Assembly (NCBI GenBank): GCA_016206285.1
Contig: JACQRW010000021.1
Span: 1-35,840 of the forward strand
From: Candidatus Sungiibacteriota bacterium
GTDB taxonomy: Bacteria > Patescibacteriota > Minisyncoccia > Sungbacterales > HO2-52-23
Direction of reading: 5' to 3'
Length of the DNA stretch: 35,840 nt
The notes below the pieces were generated by a model. That model was not told where the DNA came from and did no database searches. It worked only from the letters and a program-made list of their open reading frames with translations. The translations under genes and the position numbers were made by a program. The first letter of the stretch is position 1; each line of letters opens with the position of its first letter. Below are positions 717 through 29,451 of this stretch, in pieces.

Positions 717-748
717 AAAAATCCGGTATCCCGAGGGGTGCCGGTTTT
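717..748 (+). terminator. Rho-independent terminator-like hairpin (ccggtatccc/gggtgccgg, then T-run)
   Basis: Inverted repeat followed by ttttt between 680 and 851. Confidence 0.5.
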
Positions 749-850
749 TCCTTATGATCCTTGACAGCAATACTTGATGCAGGCTACACTCTTTATACAG
801 GATTGCAGTATTTATAAGGGTATGCTATATATTACAAATAGGTAAATTTT

Positions 851-1084
851 ATGGAAAAAATAACTCCAACAAATGAACACCCGCGAGATCGTTTCAAGCG
901 ACTTGCCACCGCTCGGACAAATATAGTCCTAAAACGCCTAAAAGTTTTAGGGAATTGTTCTAATCGGAATATCTACGAATACGACGAGCAGGACATTGAT
1001 AAAGTTTTTTCCGAGATTGAGCGAAAAGTTAAAGAAACCAAAGCAAAATTTCACTTCCCCAAAAAGAGAGACTTCAAATTATGA
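851..1084 (+). CDS. small conserved-looking protein, 77 aa; first gene of ATPase operon
   Basis: ORF; 4-nt ATGA overlap with 1081 ORF. Confidence 0.7.
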   Translation: MEKITPTNEHPRDRFKRLATARTNIVLKRLKVLGNCSNRNIYEYDEQDIDKVFSEIERKVKETKAKFHFPKKRDFKL

Positions 1085-1734
1085 AATCAAACGAAATGAA
1101 TACCAAAAAAATACTGACTGGCCTCAAACAACTCCCAGCCGTCAACTACGATGGCTTTGATCTGGACCGCCTAGTGGTATACACACTCCTTATTCTTGAA
1201 GAAAACAAGGTCCCTCTTTATTTTGATTTTATTGCTGTAGGCCTGTTCCGATTGTTTCCACACAAATTTTCTATGGCAAATTTTCGACAGTATCCAGACA
1301 CCAACCGAATCAATAAAGCTCTCCGTCGTCTGACAGATCAAAAAAGAAAAAATTGGGCTACTGGTAATTTAGAAAATGGTTTTTACTTAACAGATTTGGG
1401 TCGGGAAATGGCAAAACAGGTTTCCAATTCATTAAAAAATCCCTTACCTAAAAAGGACCGGAAACCTATTGTCGTCAGTAAATCGAGAGGAAAATCTCCA
1501 AGTGATGATATTCAAGAAATAAGAGTTTCAGAGGCTTTCAAAAAGTGGTTTGCAAGCGAAGAAGTCAATAATCATGAATTCTTCGCCTTTTTGAAAGCTG
1601 CACCATACACGCCTAAACAACTTTTGATCGAGCATTTGAAACGACTTAAAGTATCAGCGACAACCGCAAAAGATAAAGAGGTGTTGGAGTTCTTGTCTTG
1701 GCTCGAAAAAAAATTTAGTAATCTACTTTCCTAA
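1081..1734 (+). CDS. hypothetical protein, 217 aa, probable winged-helix N-terminal part
   Basis: ORF; helix-rich pattern with 'INKALRRLTDQKRKNWATGNLENGFYLTDLGREMAKQV' resembling wHTH plus wing. Confidence 0.7.
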   Translation: MKSNEMNTKKILTGLKQLPAVNYDGFDLDRLVVYTLLILEENKVPLYFDFIAVGLFRLFPHKFSMANFRQYPDTNRINKALRRLTDQKRKNWATGNLENGFYLTDLGREMAKQVSNSLKNPLPKKDRKPIVVSKSRGKSPSDDIQEIRVSEAFKKWFASEEVNNHEFFAFLKAAPYTPKQLLIEHLKRLKVSATTAKDKEVLEFLSWLEKKFSNLLS

Positions 1735-1740
1735 ACTGAT

Positions 1741-4539
1741 ATGACTGAAATTGCAGTACAAATTGCTTCACGATTCATAAAACGGCAGTTTTCAGATGCC
1801 GTCGGTAAAAGTTTGCTCAAAACCCTGACCGAACCAATAACTAATTCTGACGATAGCTATAGAAAAGTAGTTGAATCTGGACAAAACGAGGGAAATGAGA
1901 TTTTTCCCATCACAATTTTCGTTGATAAAACAAAAAGGGTTGTTCGTATTACAGACCAAGCTCAAGGAATGACCTCTACTGAGTTAGAGGATAAGTTTAA
2001 GGAATACGGAGCGGCGAAAAGTGCTGCCTATGAAGGATATAGTTCGAGGGGAATCTTTGGCCAGGGTATTTCAGATGTTCTCTTTTATCACCACGAAGGA
2101 AAAATAAAGTCGGTTAAGGACGGCGAAGCATCAATTTGTAGTTTCTACGAAAAAAAGGGGAAGCATTTTATTAGCGTCGAAAAACAGAAAGGATCGGTAG
2201 AGAAACTAGCTAAGGAATGGGGCGTGAATAGCAACCACGGAACAGTCGTTGATTTTGTTCTCGATAGTACGACTATACATGATTATGACAATCTGATAAA
2301 AAAATTGGGTTCCTTTTATATGCTTCGCCTTATACATTCAAACGATAAGCGCGTGGTCCAACTAATATATAAGGATTCGAAGGGCACGAAAAAAAGTATT
2401 GTTAAATATCAATTCCCAAAAGGCGATTTGGTTGAGCACAAAGAGTTTACTTTGCAATTTGAGCAGTATGACCCTGTAAAAATTGATATTGAGCTATATA
2501 AATCATCAACACCGCTTCAAACTGTCGGAGACGAAAGAGAAAATGGCCTATTGGTTTACGACAACAAAGAAGCTGTGTATGCTCAAACATTTTTCGGTTG
2601 GGATAATTTACCTGGTGCAGACAAATTTTTCGGCTTCATGAAACTAACCGGAGCAAGGGAAATAATCCTTGATAAAATCAACGACCCAAAACATCCAGAG
2701 GCGATACTTTCAGACGCTCGGGACGGATTCAATACACAGCATGATTTTTATAAAAAACTTTCTCTAGAAGTAAAAGATTGGCTGTATCCCATTCTCAACG
2801 AAGAAAGGCGCAAGAGGACCAACGAGGGCGTTTCTGAATCAACAAAGGAAAATCACCGGCAAGCCCTTGAAGAACTTAACAAGTTGTACGCGCAACTTAC
2901 TGGAGAAGATACAAATGGCGTAATTCGTACAAAGAAAACGGCGCGCCCCGTAGGCGGTATTGAGTTTGCTAGGAGTAACATAGCAATCACCGCAGGGAAG
3001 CGGTATGGCCTACAACTTCTTATTGATACTCGACTTATCAAGCCCGGTTCTAAAATATCTCTTAAATCCTCAAAAGGTAAGATAGGTTTCTCGCCGACCA
3101 TAATTGAGGTTAGCGACACGCCGGAGAGTAGCGATGACATCCTAATTAAAACCATAGTTGTTACCGGCTCAAACGCAAGAACTGCTGATACACTAGAGGC
3201 AAGAAGTGGGGAGCGTAGCGCCTCAGTGGTGGTCTCCATTGTGTCCGAGGATGTAGTATATCCAGAAAATGGCATCGTTTTTAGTCCGGATTACATGAGA
3301 ACCACAGCGAGTCGAGAAAGTTCGTTAAATCTTTTTGTTGATTTGAATGTCATAAAAACCGGAAGCAAAATTTCGTTTTCGAGCTCCAATGATTCAATAA
3401 TATTGAAACACAAACGAATTGCAGTTCCGCGCCGAATGCATACTACGAGTCAAGTGGCAAAAATTGAAGTGCTTTTCGTGGGTGAGAAGAATAATGAATC
3501 CAGTATTGTTGAGGCAAATTTTGGGGACTATTCAGCGCAATGCAGAGTAGACATCAAGGACCGTATTAAACCACCACCAACAGGACCGACTGGTAAGTTT
3601 AAGGATTGGGATTTTGATGACGGCGTTCCAAAACAATTGCAAACAACTTATGATCCAATGCCAGGAAGTCCAACTCAAGGATTTATACTTATCAACTCCA
3701 AGCACCCGATCAATAAATACTACTTTGGGGATAATCCACAAAAGCGTGATGTAGAGAAATCTCGTGAGGCGCAATTATATCTGGCCGAGTTGATTTTAAG
3801 TGAATCATTGGGAGCCATGATTCAAGAAGCATATCAAAAAGGTGTTATTCCGCAGAATTACGGACCTGCTACTGATATTCCTGTCTACATTGCCCAAAAG
3901 AAATTTGAGGTTGGGCCAGGAATTTATGATCGTTTCGTGGAAGATCCGTCTGCGTGGGAAGCAAGACGAGAAAAACAACTTGAAAAAGCAAAACAAGGAC
4001 AAACTCTTGGCGATAAAGACCTTGTTGAGGGAATGGAGGATCGAGAAAAACAAATGGTTGAAATGCGATTCGGTCTCAACGATCAAAGACCGCACACTTT
4101 GGAAGAAATTGCGCAAAAATTTGAAATTACTCGGGAGCGCGTCCGCCAAATAGTTAACAGAGCACTTGCTAAAAAATATGGACATTATGCTTATTCCGAA
4201 GAGGAAGGCAGAGATTATATTACTGAACAAGAGAAAAAAATAGGTTCTACTGTTGAGAGAATTATCACTGTTGTGGCAAAATTCTATAATCTAAATATAG
4301 AGGAAATGAAAAGGCGGACGCGCAAAGCAGAAGTTGCCAAACCAAGGCAGATTGCCGCTTATTTGCTTCGCGATATGGTTAGGTTATCTTTTCCATCAAT
4401 CGGACGCATGTTTGACTTAGACCACGCAACCGTACTTTACGCTTTTGAAAAAATCAGTGATGGCGTTGCTAAAGACGAGGTGCTAAAAGAACAGATTGAT
4501 TCTATAAAAAAAGTACTTAGCGAGCAGCCAGCTACTTAA
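1741..4539 (+). CDS. GHKL (HSP90/MORC-like) ATPase with tandem Ig-like repeats, sigma-70 region 4-like HTH and DnaA domain IV-like C-terminus
   Basis: N-box EPITNSDD, G1 DQAQGM, G2 SRGIFGQG; RFGLNDQRPHTLEEIAQKFEITRERVRQI (sigma70 r4); RQIAAYLLRDMVRLSFPSIGRMFDLDHATVLYAFEKI (DnaA-IV). Confidence 0.85.
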   Translation: MTEIAVQIASRFIKRQFSDAVGKSLLKTLTEPITNSDDSYRKVVESGQNEGNEIFPITIFVDKTKRVVRITDQAQGMTSTELEDKFKEYGAAKSAAYEGYSSRGIFGQGISDVLFYHHEGKIKSVKDGEASICSFYEKKGKHFISVEKQKGSVEKLAKEWGVNSNHGTVVDFVLDSTTIHDYDNLIKKLGSFYMLRLIHSNDKRVVQLIYKDSKGTKKSIVKYQFPKGDLVEHKEFTLQFEQYDPVKIDIELYKSSTPLQTVGDERENGLLVYDNKEAVYAQTFFGWDNLPGADKFFGFMKLTGAREIILDKINDPKHPEAILSDARDGFNTQHDFYKKLSLEVKDWLYPILNEERRKRTNEGVSESTKENHRQALEELNKLYAQLTGEDTNGVIRTKKTARPVGGIEFARSNIAITAGKRYGLQLLIDTRLIKPGSKISLKSSKGKIGFSPTIIEVSDTPESSDDILIKTIVVTGSNARTADTLEARSGERSASVVVSIVSEDVVYPENGIVFSPDYMRTTASRESSLNLFVDLNVIKTGSKISFSSSNDSIILKHKRIAVPRRMHTTSQVAKIEVLFVGEKNNESSIVEANFGDYSAQCRVDIKDRIKPPPTGPTGKFKDWDFDDGVPKQLQTTYDPMPGSPTQGFILINSKHPINKYYFGDNPQKRDVEKSREAQLYLAELILSESLGAMIQEAYQKGVIPQNYGPATDIPVYIAQKKFEVGPGIYDRFVEDPSAWEARREKQLEKAKQGQTLGDKDLVEGMEDREKQMVEMRFGLNDQRPHTLEEIAQKFEITRERVRQIVNRALAKKYGHYAYSEEEGRDYITEQEKKIGSTVERIITVVAKFYNLNIEEMKRRTRKAEVAKPRQIAAYLLRDMVRLSFPSIGRMFDLDHATVLYAFEKISDGVAKDEVLKEQIDSIKKVLSEQPAT

Positions 4540-7743: not shown

Positions 7744-8595
7744 ATGATTAAATCATTCTTGACAAATAGGCTTAATCGCCGTTCTCTCATTGCAATTTTT
7801 GCCGCACTCGCGGTCATCGGATCAGGGACTGTTGTCTATGCAACACACTCGTGGGGATCCTACCACTGGGCGCAGACGAGCAACCCTTTCACCCTGAAAC
7901 TTGGAGATAATGTTTCAAGCATCTGGGACGGGTACCTGAGCGAGGCTTCATCTGACTGGAGCGTATCATCATCAACTCTGCTCGGCACGAGTATCGTTGC
8001 CGGAGGCACCAATAATACCAAAGGCAAACTTACACCCAAAAACTGCGTACCCACGAGCGGGCGCGTTGAAGTTTGCAACGCAAAATACGGCAGCACCGGC
8101 TGGCTCGGAGTCGCGCAAATCTGGGCGAACGGCAGCCATATCGTGCAGGGAACCGCCAAGATGAACGACACCTACTTCAACACCCAAAAGTACAACACTC
8201 CGGCGTGGCGCAGACTGGTCATGTGCCAGGAAGTCGCACACACGTTCGGTCTGAGCCATCAGGACGAGAACTTCTCCAACATAAACCTCGGCACCTGCAT
8301 GGATTATACGGATGATCCGGACGGCACCATCAAAGGGCAGCTGAGCAATGAGCACCCGAATATACACGACTTTGATCAGCTTGCGCTCATCTATGCGCAT
8401 CTTGATACTTCCGCCACCTTGGGTGCGGAAGCTCCGAGCGCCCAAGGCAAAAGCGGCCATGCGCCTGCAGATGTTTCGGAACCGGGCGAGTGGGGGCGAG
8501 TGTTGCGGCGAGACGGCAATGGCCGCCCATCGCACTACGAACGGGACCTCGGCAACGGACAAAAAGTCTTTACCTTCGTTTTTTGGGCGGACTAA
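7744..8595 (+). CDS. secreted matrixin-like metalloprotease homolog with QExxHxxGxxH motif
   Basis: N-terminal signal-like region; CQEVAHTFGLSHQDEN...TCMDYTDDPDG. Confidence 0.75.
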   Translation: MIKSFLTNRLNRRSLIAIFAALAVIGSGTVVYATHSWGSYHWAQTSNPFTLKLGDNVSSIWDGYLSEASSDWSVSSSTLLGTSIVAGGTNNTKGKLTPKNCVPTSGRVEVCNAKYGSTGWLGVAQIWANGSHIVQGTAKMNDTYFNTQKYNTPAWRRLVMCQEVAHTFGLSHQDENFSNINLGTCMDYTDDPDGTIKGQLSNEHPNIHDFDQLALIYAHLDTSATLGAEAPSAQGKSGHAPADVSEPGEWGRVLRRDGNGRPSHYERDLGNGQKVFTFVFWAD

Positions 8596-27945: not shown

Positions 27946-29451
27946 TTAAGTTTCATCAGACCAAAATTTAAAATACGACATCAATGAAGCAAATTCGGCA
28001 TTGTCGGACTGCAGCGGATCAAACATGTTGCAGCGGTACCCGCGATACCAAATATTCGACCAGTCAATAGTCACCGTATCCTTTTTGTCGGCACGCATCA
28101 TTGCCTCCACAAACTTGCCCCGCATGCGCGCGCGCGTGGTTTGCGGCGGATTATACTGGGCATATGCGATCTCCGCATCGGTAAACAGCCGCGATGCGGG
28201 ATAGCGTTCATGCAGAATCCGGCTCATGGTTTTTTGGCTGCTTCCCGAAACGGGCAATTCGTGGTATTTCAACTCCAAATGCCTTTGTCTGAGGATCCAT
28301 TGGGGACTGTGCACTATGTGTTTTCCAACCCGATATTCTTCCATAAAACGCCACTTCATCATATAGTCCAGCCGCTCACCCAGCCATACCGTATCATTGG
28401 CATAAATCGCGTTCAGCGCATGAGTCCACTCATGCAGCACTTGCCATGCCTCGGCCTCGCTTTGTTCCGATGCAAAATTTGTTTTTTTAAGATACCATTC
28501 GGCTTCTTCAAGATACCATGTTTGCAGCGTGTACGCGCTCACCCTTCCTCCGCCTTTCAACGTAATCAGCCTGGTTTGTCCGCGATCCGCAAAATCATAG
28601 CTTACGCTGCGCATTTGTCTGGCAATCAACGTATGATCGGACAACATGGGCCTTGCATACTCCCATTTGAAACGGACTCCATCCTGAATCATAGAGATCA
28701 CCAGAGCAGTTATGCCAAGCGACAGCCATATCTGATATTCGGACATATTGGCATCTCCGCAAATAATATGCAATCGCCTGATCTTATCTTTCAAAACGCC
28801 CGTATGCGGTTCATCGCGAGTGCTCAATATCGAACGGCCAGAGGTGGTCGTACTGCCTACATCGGTGCTCATACAAAGCGCGCGCTGCGAATAGCACCAC
28901 CTTCCTTGTTCATCCACCCAGCCATTGCCGGTTATAATCTGTCTGCTTGCCAAAAACGGAATGAGAAAAGAAATAAACGCCGGGCTGTCGGGACGGAATT
29001 TCGTCTGATAATTTTCATGCATGCCGACTGTTGTGGATTGAAGGCCATTTTGATCAAGACCAAGATTATGCTTAAAAAGGACAACGCGCGATCCGTCAGG
29101 ACGGGGGTCGCCATACAATCCGGTAATGAGCAGCTGGCCCGCAATATTGTACAGCGCCGCCTCGCGCGGTCCCCGGCATTCGGGTCCGGCATGTTCAGGC
29201 GTGCTACCGGTATCAAGATACATGCATCCGCCGTTTGGCATATACAGCCTCCGGTCTGAAAAGATGCCGGGCAGATCGCATCGCGGATTCGGCAAGGTCG
29301 GCACTGAATCGGGACGCAATATGATATTTGCAGAAATAGGCATAAAAAAGCCTGATTCCAAATCGCGTTTTGTTGCGGGTCTTACACTCCCATCAGGATA
29401 TTGAACAAGCACATGAAATTCATTTTCAACGGCCATGACGCCATCATCCAT
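27946..29451 (-). CDS. PafA/Dop family protein (Pup ligase / deamidase fold)
   Basis: MAVENEFHVL; MPNGGCMYLDTGSTPEHAGPECRGPREAALYNIAGQ; STRDEPHTG; LHIICGDANMSEYQIWLSLGITALVISMI; GGAGG SD. Confidence 0.85.
   Translation of the reverse strand: MDDGVMAVENEFHVLVQYPDGSVRPATKRDLESGFFMPISANIILRPDSVPTLPNPRCDLPGIFSDRRLYMPNGGCMYLDTGSTPEHAGPECRGPREAALYNIAGQLLITGLYGDPRPDGSRVVLFKHNLGLDQNGLQSTTVGMHENYQTKFRPDSPAFISFLIPFLASRQIITGNGWVDEQGRWCYSQRALCMSTDVGSTTTSGRSILSTRDEPHTGVLKDKIRRLHIICGDANMSEYQIWLSLGITALVISMIQDGVRFKWEYARPMLSDHTLIARQMRSVSYDFADRGQTRLITLKGGGRVSAYTLQTWYLEEAEWYLKKTNFASEQSEAEAWQVLHEWTHALNAIYANDTVWLGERLDYMMKWRFMEEYRVGKHIVHSPQWILRQRHLELKYHELPVSGSSQKTMSRILHERYPASRLFTDAEIAYAQYNPPQTTRARMRGKFVEAMMRADKKDTVTIDWSNIWYRGYRCNMFDPLQSDNAEFASLMSYFKFWSDET

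What the first reader, a model, noticed from the sequence alone, without database searches (positions are those of the whole stretch)
1741..4539. GHKL ATPase fused to sigma-70 region 4 HTH and DnaA domain IV-like HTH
Seen directly: an N-terminal GHKL triad (EPITNSDD; DQAQGM; SRGIFGQG), then near the C-terminus RFGLNDQRPHTLEEIAQKFEITRERVRQI (diagnostic of sigma-70 region 4) and RQIAAYLLRDMVRLSFPSIGRMFDLDHATVLYAFEKI (diagnostic of the DnaA domain IV DnaA-box binding HTH). A MORC/HSP90-like ATP clamp with two sequence-specific DNA-binding modules borrowed from transcription and replication initiation is an architecture I do not recognise. It could be an origin/promoter-recognising DNA clamp, a regulator, or an anti-phage effector.
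Basis: partly seen in the sequence, partly recalled or inferred. Interest (0 to 1): 0.92.

Follow-up and report, generated by a model that had tools for sequence, protein, structure and literature searches.

The report
ATPase clamp with two borrowed DNA-binders
A tiny-genome bacterium encodes an Hsp90/MutL-like ATPase fused to a promoter-reading and an origin-reading DNA-binding domain, inside a conserved three-gene cassette whose relatives sit beside restriction-modification genes, so it is probably an unusual genome-defence machine aimed at the DNA sites where transcription or replication starts.

Summary
Observation confirmed. ORF 1741-4539 encodes one 932-aa protein: GHKL ATPase (motifs intact), two Ig-like repeats, sigma-70 region 4 (aa 764-811, 7e-13) and DnaA domain IV (aa 838-905, 1.3e-22). 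It is not an assembly fusion: three other assemblies carry the same order, and the tail is under purifying selection. A 77-aa gene (851-1084) and a 217-aa gene (1081-1734) lie tightly packed upstream, and the small-217-GHKL trio recurs in all seven related patescibacterial loci whose 5' side is available. In two of these the tail is a separate third gene (DnaA-IV plus sigma r4, or alpha-CTD plus sigma r4) next to a C5-methyltransferase and Vsr. So the window protein is a fused version of an ATPase plus DNA-binding subunit from restriction-modification-type cassettes; this genome has no C5-methyltransferase or Vsr. The small protein also precedes several unrelated GHKL-like families and is far better conserved than its partners. 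Most likely an ATP-driven DNA clamp steered to promoter- or origin-like sites for defence; the mechanism is inferred. Novelty: new variant of a known kind (R-M-linked GHKL/paraMORC, MZA).

The parts
723..744 (+). terminator-like hairpin with T-run that may insulate the cassette from the upstream gene
   Evidence: 1 found, 0.2 expected
761..790 (+). sigma-70-type promoter-like site TTGACA-18-TACACT upstream of the small gene; similar sites upstream of the small gene in other loci
   Evidence: pattern match; 0.9 expected by chance in the region, so suggestive only
851..1084 (+). small conserved protein, 77 aa, first gene of the operon; family without Pfam or NCBIfam model
   Evidence: present 5' of the 217-aa gene in all seven related patescibacterial loci where the 5' side is available
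1081..1734 (+). 217-aa partner protein, possibly winged-helix-like (not confirmed); overlaps the small gene by 4 bp
   Evidence: no Pfam/PADLOC/NCBIfam match; tree congruent with the GHKL tree
1741..4539 (+). 932-aa fusion protein: GHKL ATPase, Ig-like repeats, helical segment, sigma r4, DnaA domain IV
1741..2925 (+). GHKL ATP-binding domain and following transducer-like (S5-type) region, aa 1-395; E31, N35, D72, G76, G107, G109 and R327 invariant in 9 family members
2938..3249 (+). first Ig-like/beta repeat, aa 400-503
   Evidence: hhalign of repeat 1 against repeat 2: 96%, E 1.6e-9
3250..3564 (+). second Ig-like/beta repeat, aa 504-608
4030..4173 (+). sigma-70 region 4 HTH, aa 764-811, with the TRERVRQI recognition helix intact
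   Evidence: dN/dS 0.03 against L014
4252..4455 (+). DnaA domain IV, aa 838-905, with the PRQ and DHxT DnaA-box contact positions kept (DHAT here, DHTT in the relatives)
   Evidence: dN/dS 0.16 against L014

Best explanation
The three genes 851-4539 form one accessory genome-conflict cassette. The large protein is an ATP-dependent GHKL dimer/clamp whose DNA-targeting subunit, a separate gene in Dcm/Vsr-linked relatives, is fused to its C-terminus. Sigma r4 (-35 element and/or RNA polymerase beta-flap) and DnaA-IV (DnaA-box-like sites) bring the ATPase to places where transcription or replication of incoming DNA starts; ATP binding closes the clamp there and blocks initiation or recruits an unlinked effector. 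The 217-aa protein and the small protein are dedicated partners (regulation, loading or sensing). Shown: architecture, cassette, intact ATPase and DNA-contact residues, purifying selection, co-inheritance, link of relatives to R-M genes. Inferred: DNA targeting, clamp closure, defence function, roles of the two small partners.
For: Domains. Same architecture in four assemblies. Operon small-217-GHKL (4-bp overlap, then 6-nt gap); same trio in L013, L024, L015, L025, L026, L027, L034. GHKL and 217-aa trees agree on the main groups. Split form: G434/L027 has GHKL followed by a 382-aa DnaA-IV + sigma r4 + Zn-ribbon-like protein, then C5-MTase and Vsr; G157/L034 has GHKL followed by a 495-aa alpha-CTD + sigma r4 + HARE-HTH-like protein, with C5-MTase and Vsr. 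Relatives in defence/mobile surroundings: BsaWI-type REase and LexA-methylase fusion in L015, PDC-S11 nuclease and serine recombinase in L024. Accessory: absent from 12 other members of the window's family searched. The companion small gene precedes GHKL-like genes in R-M clusters on plasmids of several phyla.
Against: No nuclease, methyltransferase or other obvious effector in the window cassette, and no C5-MTase or Vsr in the 91%-complete genome. No DnaA-box excess in the window and none upstream of the operon. No experiment on any member. The AF2 model is poor, so the clamp geometry is not modelled. PADLOC recognises only the sigma r4 part, as MzaA.
Confidence: 0.45

Rival explanations
1. 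It is chiefly an ATP-switched transcription regulator: sigma r4 binds -35 elements or the RNA polymerase beta-flap, DnaA-IV binds DnaA boxes, and the ATPase gates binding so as to control host or neighbouring genes, its own operon included.
For: Intact DNA-contact residues; TTGACA promoter-like sites upstream of the cassette in several loci; significant inverted repeats upstream of three of eight cassettes.
Against: Operator-like repeats are not significant in the window; promoter-like sites are near chance; relatives lack the tail but keep the cassette (L015, L025), so the tail is not the core activity; R-M and defence surroundings of relatives.
Confidence: 0.2
2. It is a solitary module of a restriction system that works with an unlinked nuclease or methyltransferase elsewhere in the genome, as Iyer et al. 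suggested for solo paraMORC3.
For: Relatives sit with C5-MTase/Vsr or with nucleases; weak HNH-like gene near L014.
Against: No C5-MTase or Vsr anywhere in the genome; neighbours differ between all fused members, so no single effector is retained.
Confidence: 0.17
3. It acts in DNA repair or replication control (a MutL-like clamp that marks origins or stalled forks) rather than defence.
For: GHKL fold shared with MutL; Vsr association of relatives; DnaA-IV domain.
Against: Sporadic accessory distribution (ATPase profile in 5 of 387 genomes of the class; 217-aa profile in 5 of 384 of the phylum; absent from 12 family members); defence-island neighbours of relatives.
Confidence: 0.1
4. It belongs to a mobile element and biases that element's own replication or transcription.
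For: Serine recombinases near L024 and L034; relatives on plasmids.
Against: The L013 and L014 copies lie among chromosomal housekeeping genes with no element genes adjacent, and none was seen next to the window copy.
Confidence: 0.08

Closest known systems
paraMORC/MORC GHKL ATPases of restriction-modification systems (Iyer, Abhiman & Aravind 2008, PMC2292703)
   Same: N-terminal GHKL plus following S5-type region, own C-terminal extension, gene neighbourhoods with C5-methyltransferase and Vsr (in the relatives), sporadic distribution
   Different: Described extensions are nucleases, TIR or unknown; the text has no sigma or DnaA domain; window genome lacks C5-MTase and Vsr; no family profile was on hand to test membership in paraMORC1-5
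MZA anti-phage system (MzaA sigma-factor-like; PADLOC PDLC02203, NCBIfam NF041931)
   Same: A sigma r4 protein paired with a MutL/GHKL-type ATPase in a defence operon, the same pairing as in the split loci G434 and G157
   Different: Only the r4 segment matches MzaA; DnaA-IV, the 217-aa and the 77-aa genes are, to my knowledge, not part of MZA
VcSduA (Shedu type with GHKL N-terminus, V. cholerae, PMC12137116)
   Same: GHKL ATPase proposed as a clamp that controls a C-terminal module in a defence protein
   Different: C-terminal module is a nuclease there, two DNA-binding domains here
HEF_HK / Response_reg_2 pairs linked to type II R-M (PMC8011034)
   Same: HATPase_c_3-type ATPase with a conserved partner gene next to C5-MTase and Vsr
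   Different: Neither PF19191 nor PF19192 matches here; no sigma or DnaA domain in that text
DnaA and sigma-70 factors
   Same: Domain IV and region 4 with contact residues kept
   Different: No AAA+ domain, no sigma regions 2-3; not members

Membership tests
GHKL ATPase superfamily | Bergerat ATP-binding motifs (ExxxN, DxxxG, GxxGxG) | tested here: met
   E31, N35, D72, G76, G107, G109 invariant in 9 relatives; Hsp90 N-domain hits
MORC/paraMORC (R-M GHKL) | S5-type domain after GHKL with a basic catalytic residue | tested here: inconclusive
   R327 invariant in 9 relatives but the AF2 model is poor
MORC/paraMORC (R-M GHKL) | Gene linked to DNA methyltransferase/endonuclease | tested here: not met
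   None seen next to the genes in the window or L013; no C5-MTase/Vsr in the genome; met in relatives G434 and G157
MZA system | MzaA sigma-like protein, full-length match | tested here: not met
   Only 53 of 683 profile positions match; NCBIfam score 51.9 against cut-off 800
MZA system | Z1, DUF and AIPR genes in the operon | not tested
   Not specifically searched; the nearest flanking genes that were scanned show no such domain
DnaA initiator | AAA+ ATPase domain next to domain IV | tested here: not met
   No AAA+ match; own DnaA is a separate gene on contig C9
Sigma-70 factor | Regions 2 and 3 for core binding and -10 recognition | tested here: not met
   Only region 4 matched
Shedu / VcSduA | C-terminal DUF4263 nuclease | tested here: not met
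   No such match

The most novel reading that the evidence does not exclude
A class of conflict system in which a GHKL clamp is steered to the starting points of transcription and replication by borrowed initiator domains, and in which a hyper-conserved ~75-aa protein is a general companion of many unrelated GHKL ATPases, possibly docking them onto a conserved host component such as RNA polymerase or the replication initiator.
Probability: 0.3. Interest if true: 0.88.

Novelty: new variant of a known kind. Interest (0 to 1): 0.74.

Why it matters
If true, bacteria defend themselves by guarding initiation sites: the recognition modules that sigma factors and DnaA use to find promoters and origins would be re-used to catch foreign DNA as it starts to be read or copied. 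It would link MORC-type ATPases, which silence DNA in eukaryotes, to a prokaryotic site-directed step, and it makes the long-open role of GHKL ATPases in restriction systems testable, because here the targeting part is in the same chain. The small companion protein gives a genome-mining handle for many unannotated GHKL systems.

Tried and rejected
Assembly fusion or frameshift: rejected, same order in four assemblies and low dN/dS. Chance HTH look-alikes: rejected by E-values and PDB matches. Phage or plasmid origin of the fused form: no match in phages, plasmids or viral contigs with the ATPase part. DnaA-box cluster near the gene: none above chance. Palindromic operator at the window cassette: not significant, though significant at L013, L025 and L034. 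Conserved RNA element instead of the small protein: Rfam finds only tRNAs and four-fold sites of the small gene are saturated. AF2 models of the fusion and of the 217-aa protein were too weak to use (pLDDT 37 and 53), so no fold search was run. Hits G141, G055, G274 and G182 were only weak matches; G141 and G055, which I read, are histidine kinases. A PDB profile search with nine GHKL-like proteins that follow the small gene found nothing, so their GHKL nature rests on motifs.

Full report
Observation. The window is contig C16 of a 754-kb, 91%-complete patescibacterial genome. The frame 1741-4539 translates to 932 aa. Pfam gives Bac_DnaA_C at aa 838-905 (1.3e-22) and Sigma70_r4 at 764-811 (7e-13), both above the curated cut-off, and HATPase_c_3 at 29-136 (4e-4, below it). 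A profile of seven family members hits Hsp90 N-domains in the PDB at 4.8e-5, and the ATP-binding residues E31, N35, D72, G76, G107 and G109 are invariant in nine relatives. The tail alone matches DnaA and sigma-A/RpoD region 4 structures. Between the parts lie two Ig-like repeats, aa 400-503 and 504-608, similar to each other (hhalign 96%), and a helical stretch.

Not an artefact. The same order GHKL, sigma r4, DnaA-IV occurs in L013 (60% identity, 939 aa), L014 (Ca. Nealsonbacteria, 82%, 5' end missing) and G601/L024 (963 aa, about 38% over the ATPase part). Against L014, synonymous sites are near saturation while dN is 0.05 in sigma r4 (dN/dS 0.03) and 0.2 in DnaA-IV (0.16). The sigma recognition helix RERxRQI and the DnaA positions PR(Q/H) and DHxT are kept in all four tails. 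That these positions contact the -35 element and the DnaA box is established knowledge from E. coli sigma-70 and DnaA, not tested here. The architecture is rare: the tail profile run on 384 genomes of the phylum listed otherwise ordinary DnaA-type matches, and 12 other genomes of the window's family, one of the same genus, lack the ATPase gene.

The cassette. Upstream, 851-1084 encodes 77 aa and overlaps by 4 bp a 217-aa gene (1081-1734), which ends 6 nt before the fusion gene. The 217-aa protein has no database match; I suspect a winged helix but could not confirm it (AF2 pLDDT 53). The same trio occurs in L013, L024, L015, L025, L026, L027 and L034. GHKL and 217-aa trees give the same main groups. 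A terminator-like hairpin and a TTGACA-type site precede the window cassette; the promoter match alone is near chance.

Split relatives. In G434 the GHKL gene is followed by a separate 382-aa protein with DnaA-IV (5e-22) and sigma r4 (4e-5), then a C5-methyltransferase and a Vsr endonuclease. In G157 the third protein has RNA polymerase alpha-CTD, sigma r4 and a weak HARE-HTH, and C5-methyltransferase and Vsr are again adjacent. In L015 and L025 the GHKL protein has no tail; L015 lies beside a LexA-methylase fusion and a BsaWI-type nuclease. An Ensifer plasmid has small gene, GHKL and 217-type gene. So the tail behaves like a DNA-binding subunit that may be separate, fused or absent, and the fused group is one clade of the GHKL tree (100/100). 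Whether fusion followed the split state or the domains were recruited twice cannot be decided.

The small protein. In the phylum draw 11 genomes have it. Ten of the eleven loci place it directly before a GHKL-type gene, or before the 217-aa gene and then the GHKL gene; G229 is the exception. Several of these ATPases belong to other GHKL-like families; Pfam supports this for L094 and, on plasmids, L073 and L078; for the rest only the N1, N2 and G-box motifs do. On plasmids of Actinomycetota, Bacillota, Alphaproteobacteria and Deinococcota it precedes similar genes (in Deinococcus the next gene did not show the motifs), often with dcm, Vsr or type II endonucleases. It is far better conserved than its neighbours: window against G434 74%, while the 217-aa protein is 27% and the GHKL part 22%; window against G225 79% although the ATPase there is of another family; four-fold sites are saturated. 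A conserved host target is my inference.

Mechanism. Shown: architecture, intact motifs, selection, co-inheritance, R-M context of relatives. Inferred: sigma r4 and DnaA-IV bring a GHKL clamp to initiation sites (or to RNA polymerase through the beta-flap), and ATP-driven closure blocks initiation or calls an effector. The absence of C5-methyltransferase and Vsr from this genome argues that the fused form no longer depends on that R-M pair, or uses another partner.

Known relatives. Iyer et al. 2008 describe GHKL paraMORCs in R-M operons with Dcm and Vsr but no sigma or DnaA domain in the text. MZA pairs a sigma-like MzaA with a MutL-like ATPase (and general knowledge), the closest functional precedent; only 53 residues match MzaA here. 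VcSduA shows a GHKL domain in a defence effector. The full-text library holds open papers only, so an unseen description is possible. Membership in paraMORC1-5 could not be tested.

Verdict. Real, rare and conserved architecture; a new variant of R-M-linked GHKL systems; function likely in genome conflict, mechanism open.

Noticed in passing
window 851-1084; L092 4649-4879; L095 2587-2814; L075 7001-7234: A ~75-aa protein family (RFKRLAxxRTNxVL...LGNxSNR) precedes GHKL-like ATPases of several unrelated families and is much more conserved than its neighbours; no Pfam or NCBIfam model.
   Followed up: partly
L079 3992-4243; L080 3989-4309: Synechococcus phages carry distant homologues of the small companion protein without a GHKL gene annotated next to it; possibly a phage-encoded mimic or decoy.
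   Followed up: no
L034 6109-7596: Protein joining RNA polymerase alpha-CTD, sigma region 4 and a weak HARE-HTH, encoded after a GHKL gene with C5-MTase and Vsr nearby.
   Followed up: partly
L004 (G000 contig C19, near 28860-29003): Own genome encodes another protein with a sigma-r4 segment whose C-terminal region resembles the HARE-HTH part of the G157 protein.
   Followed up: no
L005 (G000 contig C17): The sigma-like protein there has a diverged region 4 recognition helix (CSGETARKVEE) whereas the fusion protein keeps the canonical TRERVRQI.
   Followed up: no
L015 10363-11775: LexA-type repressor (HTH plus S24 peptidase) fused to an N6/N4 DNA methylase, beside a BsaWI-type restriction enzyme.
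   Followed up: no
L035 6038-6376; L036 7660-7965: Short orphan proteins (100-112 aa) similar to the N-terminal half of the 217-aa partner, without a GHKL gene seen next to them.
   Followed up: no
window 7744-8595: Secreted metalloprotease-like protein with an HTFGLSHQ-type zinc-binding motif (read by eye).
   Followed up: no
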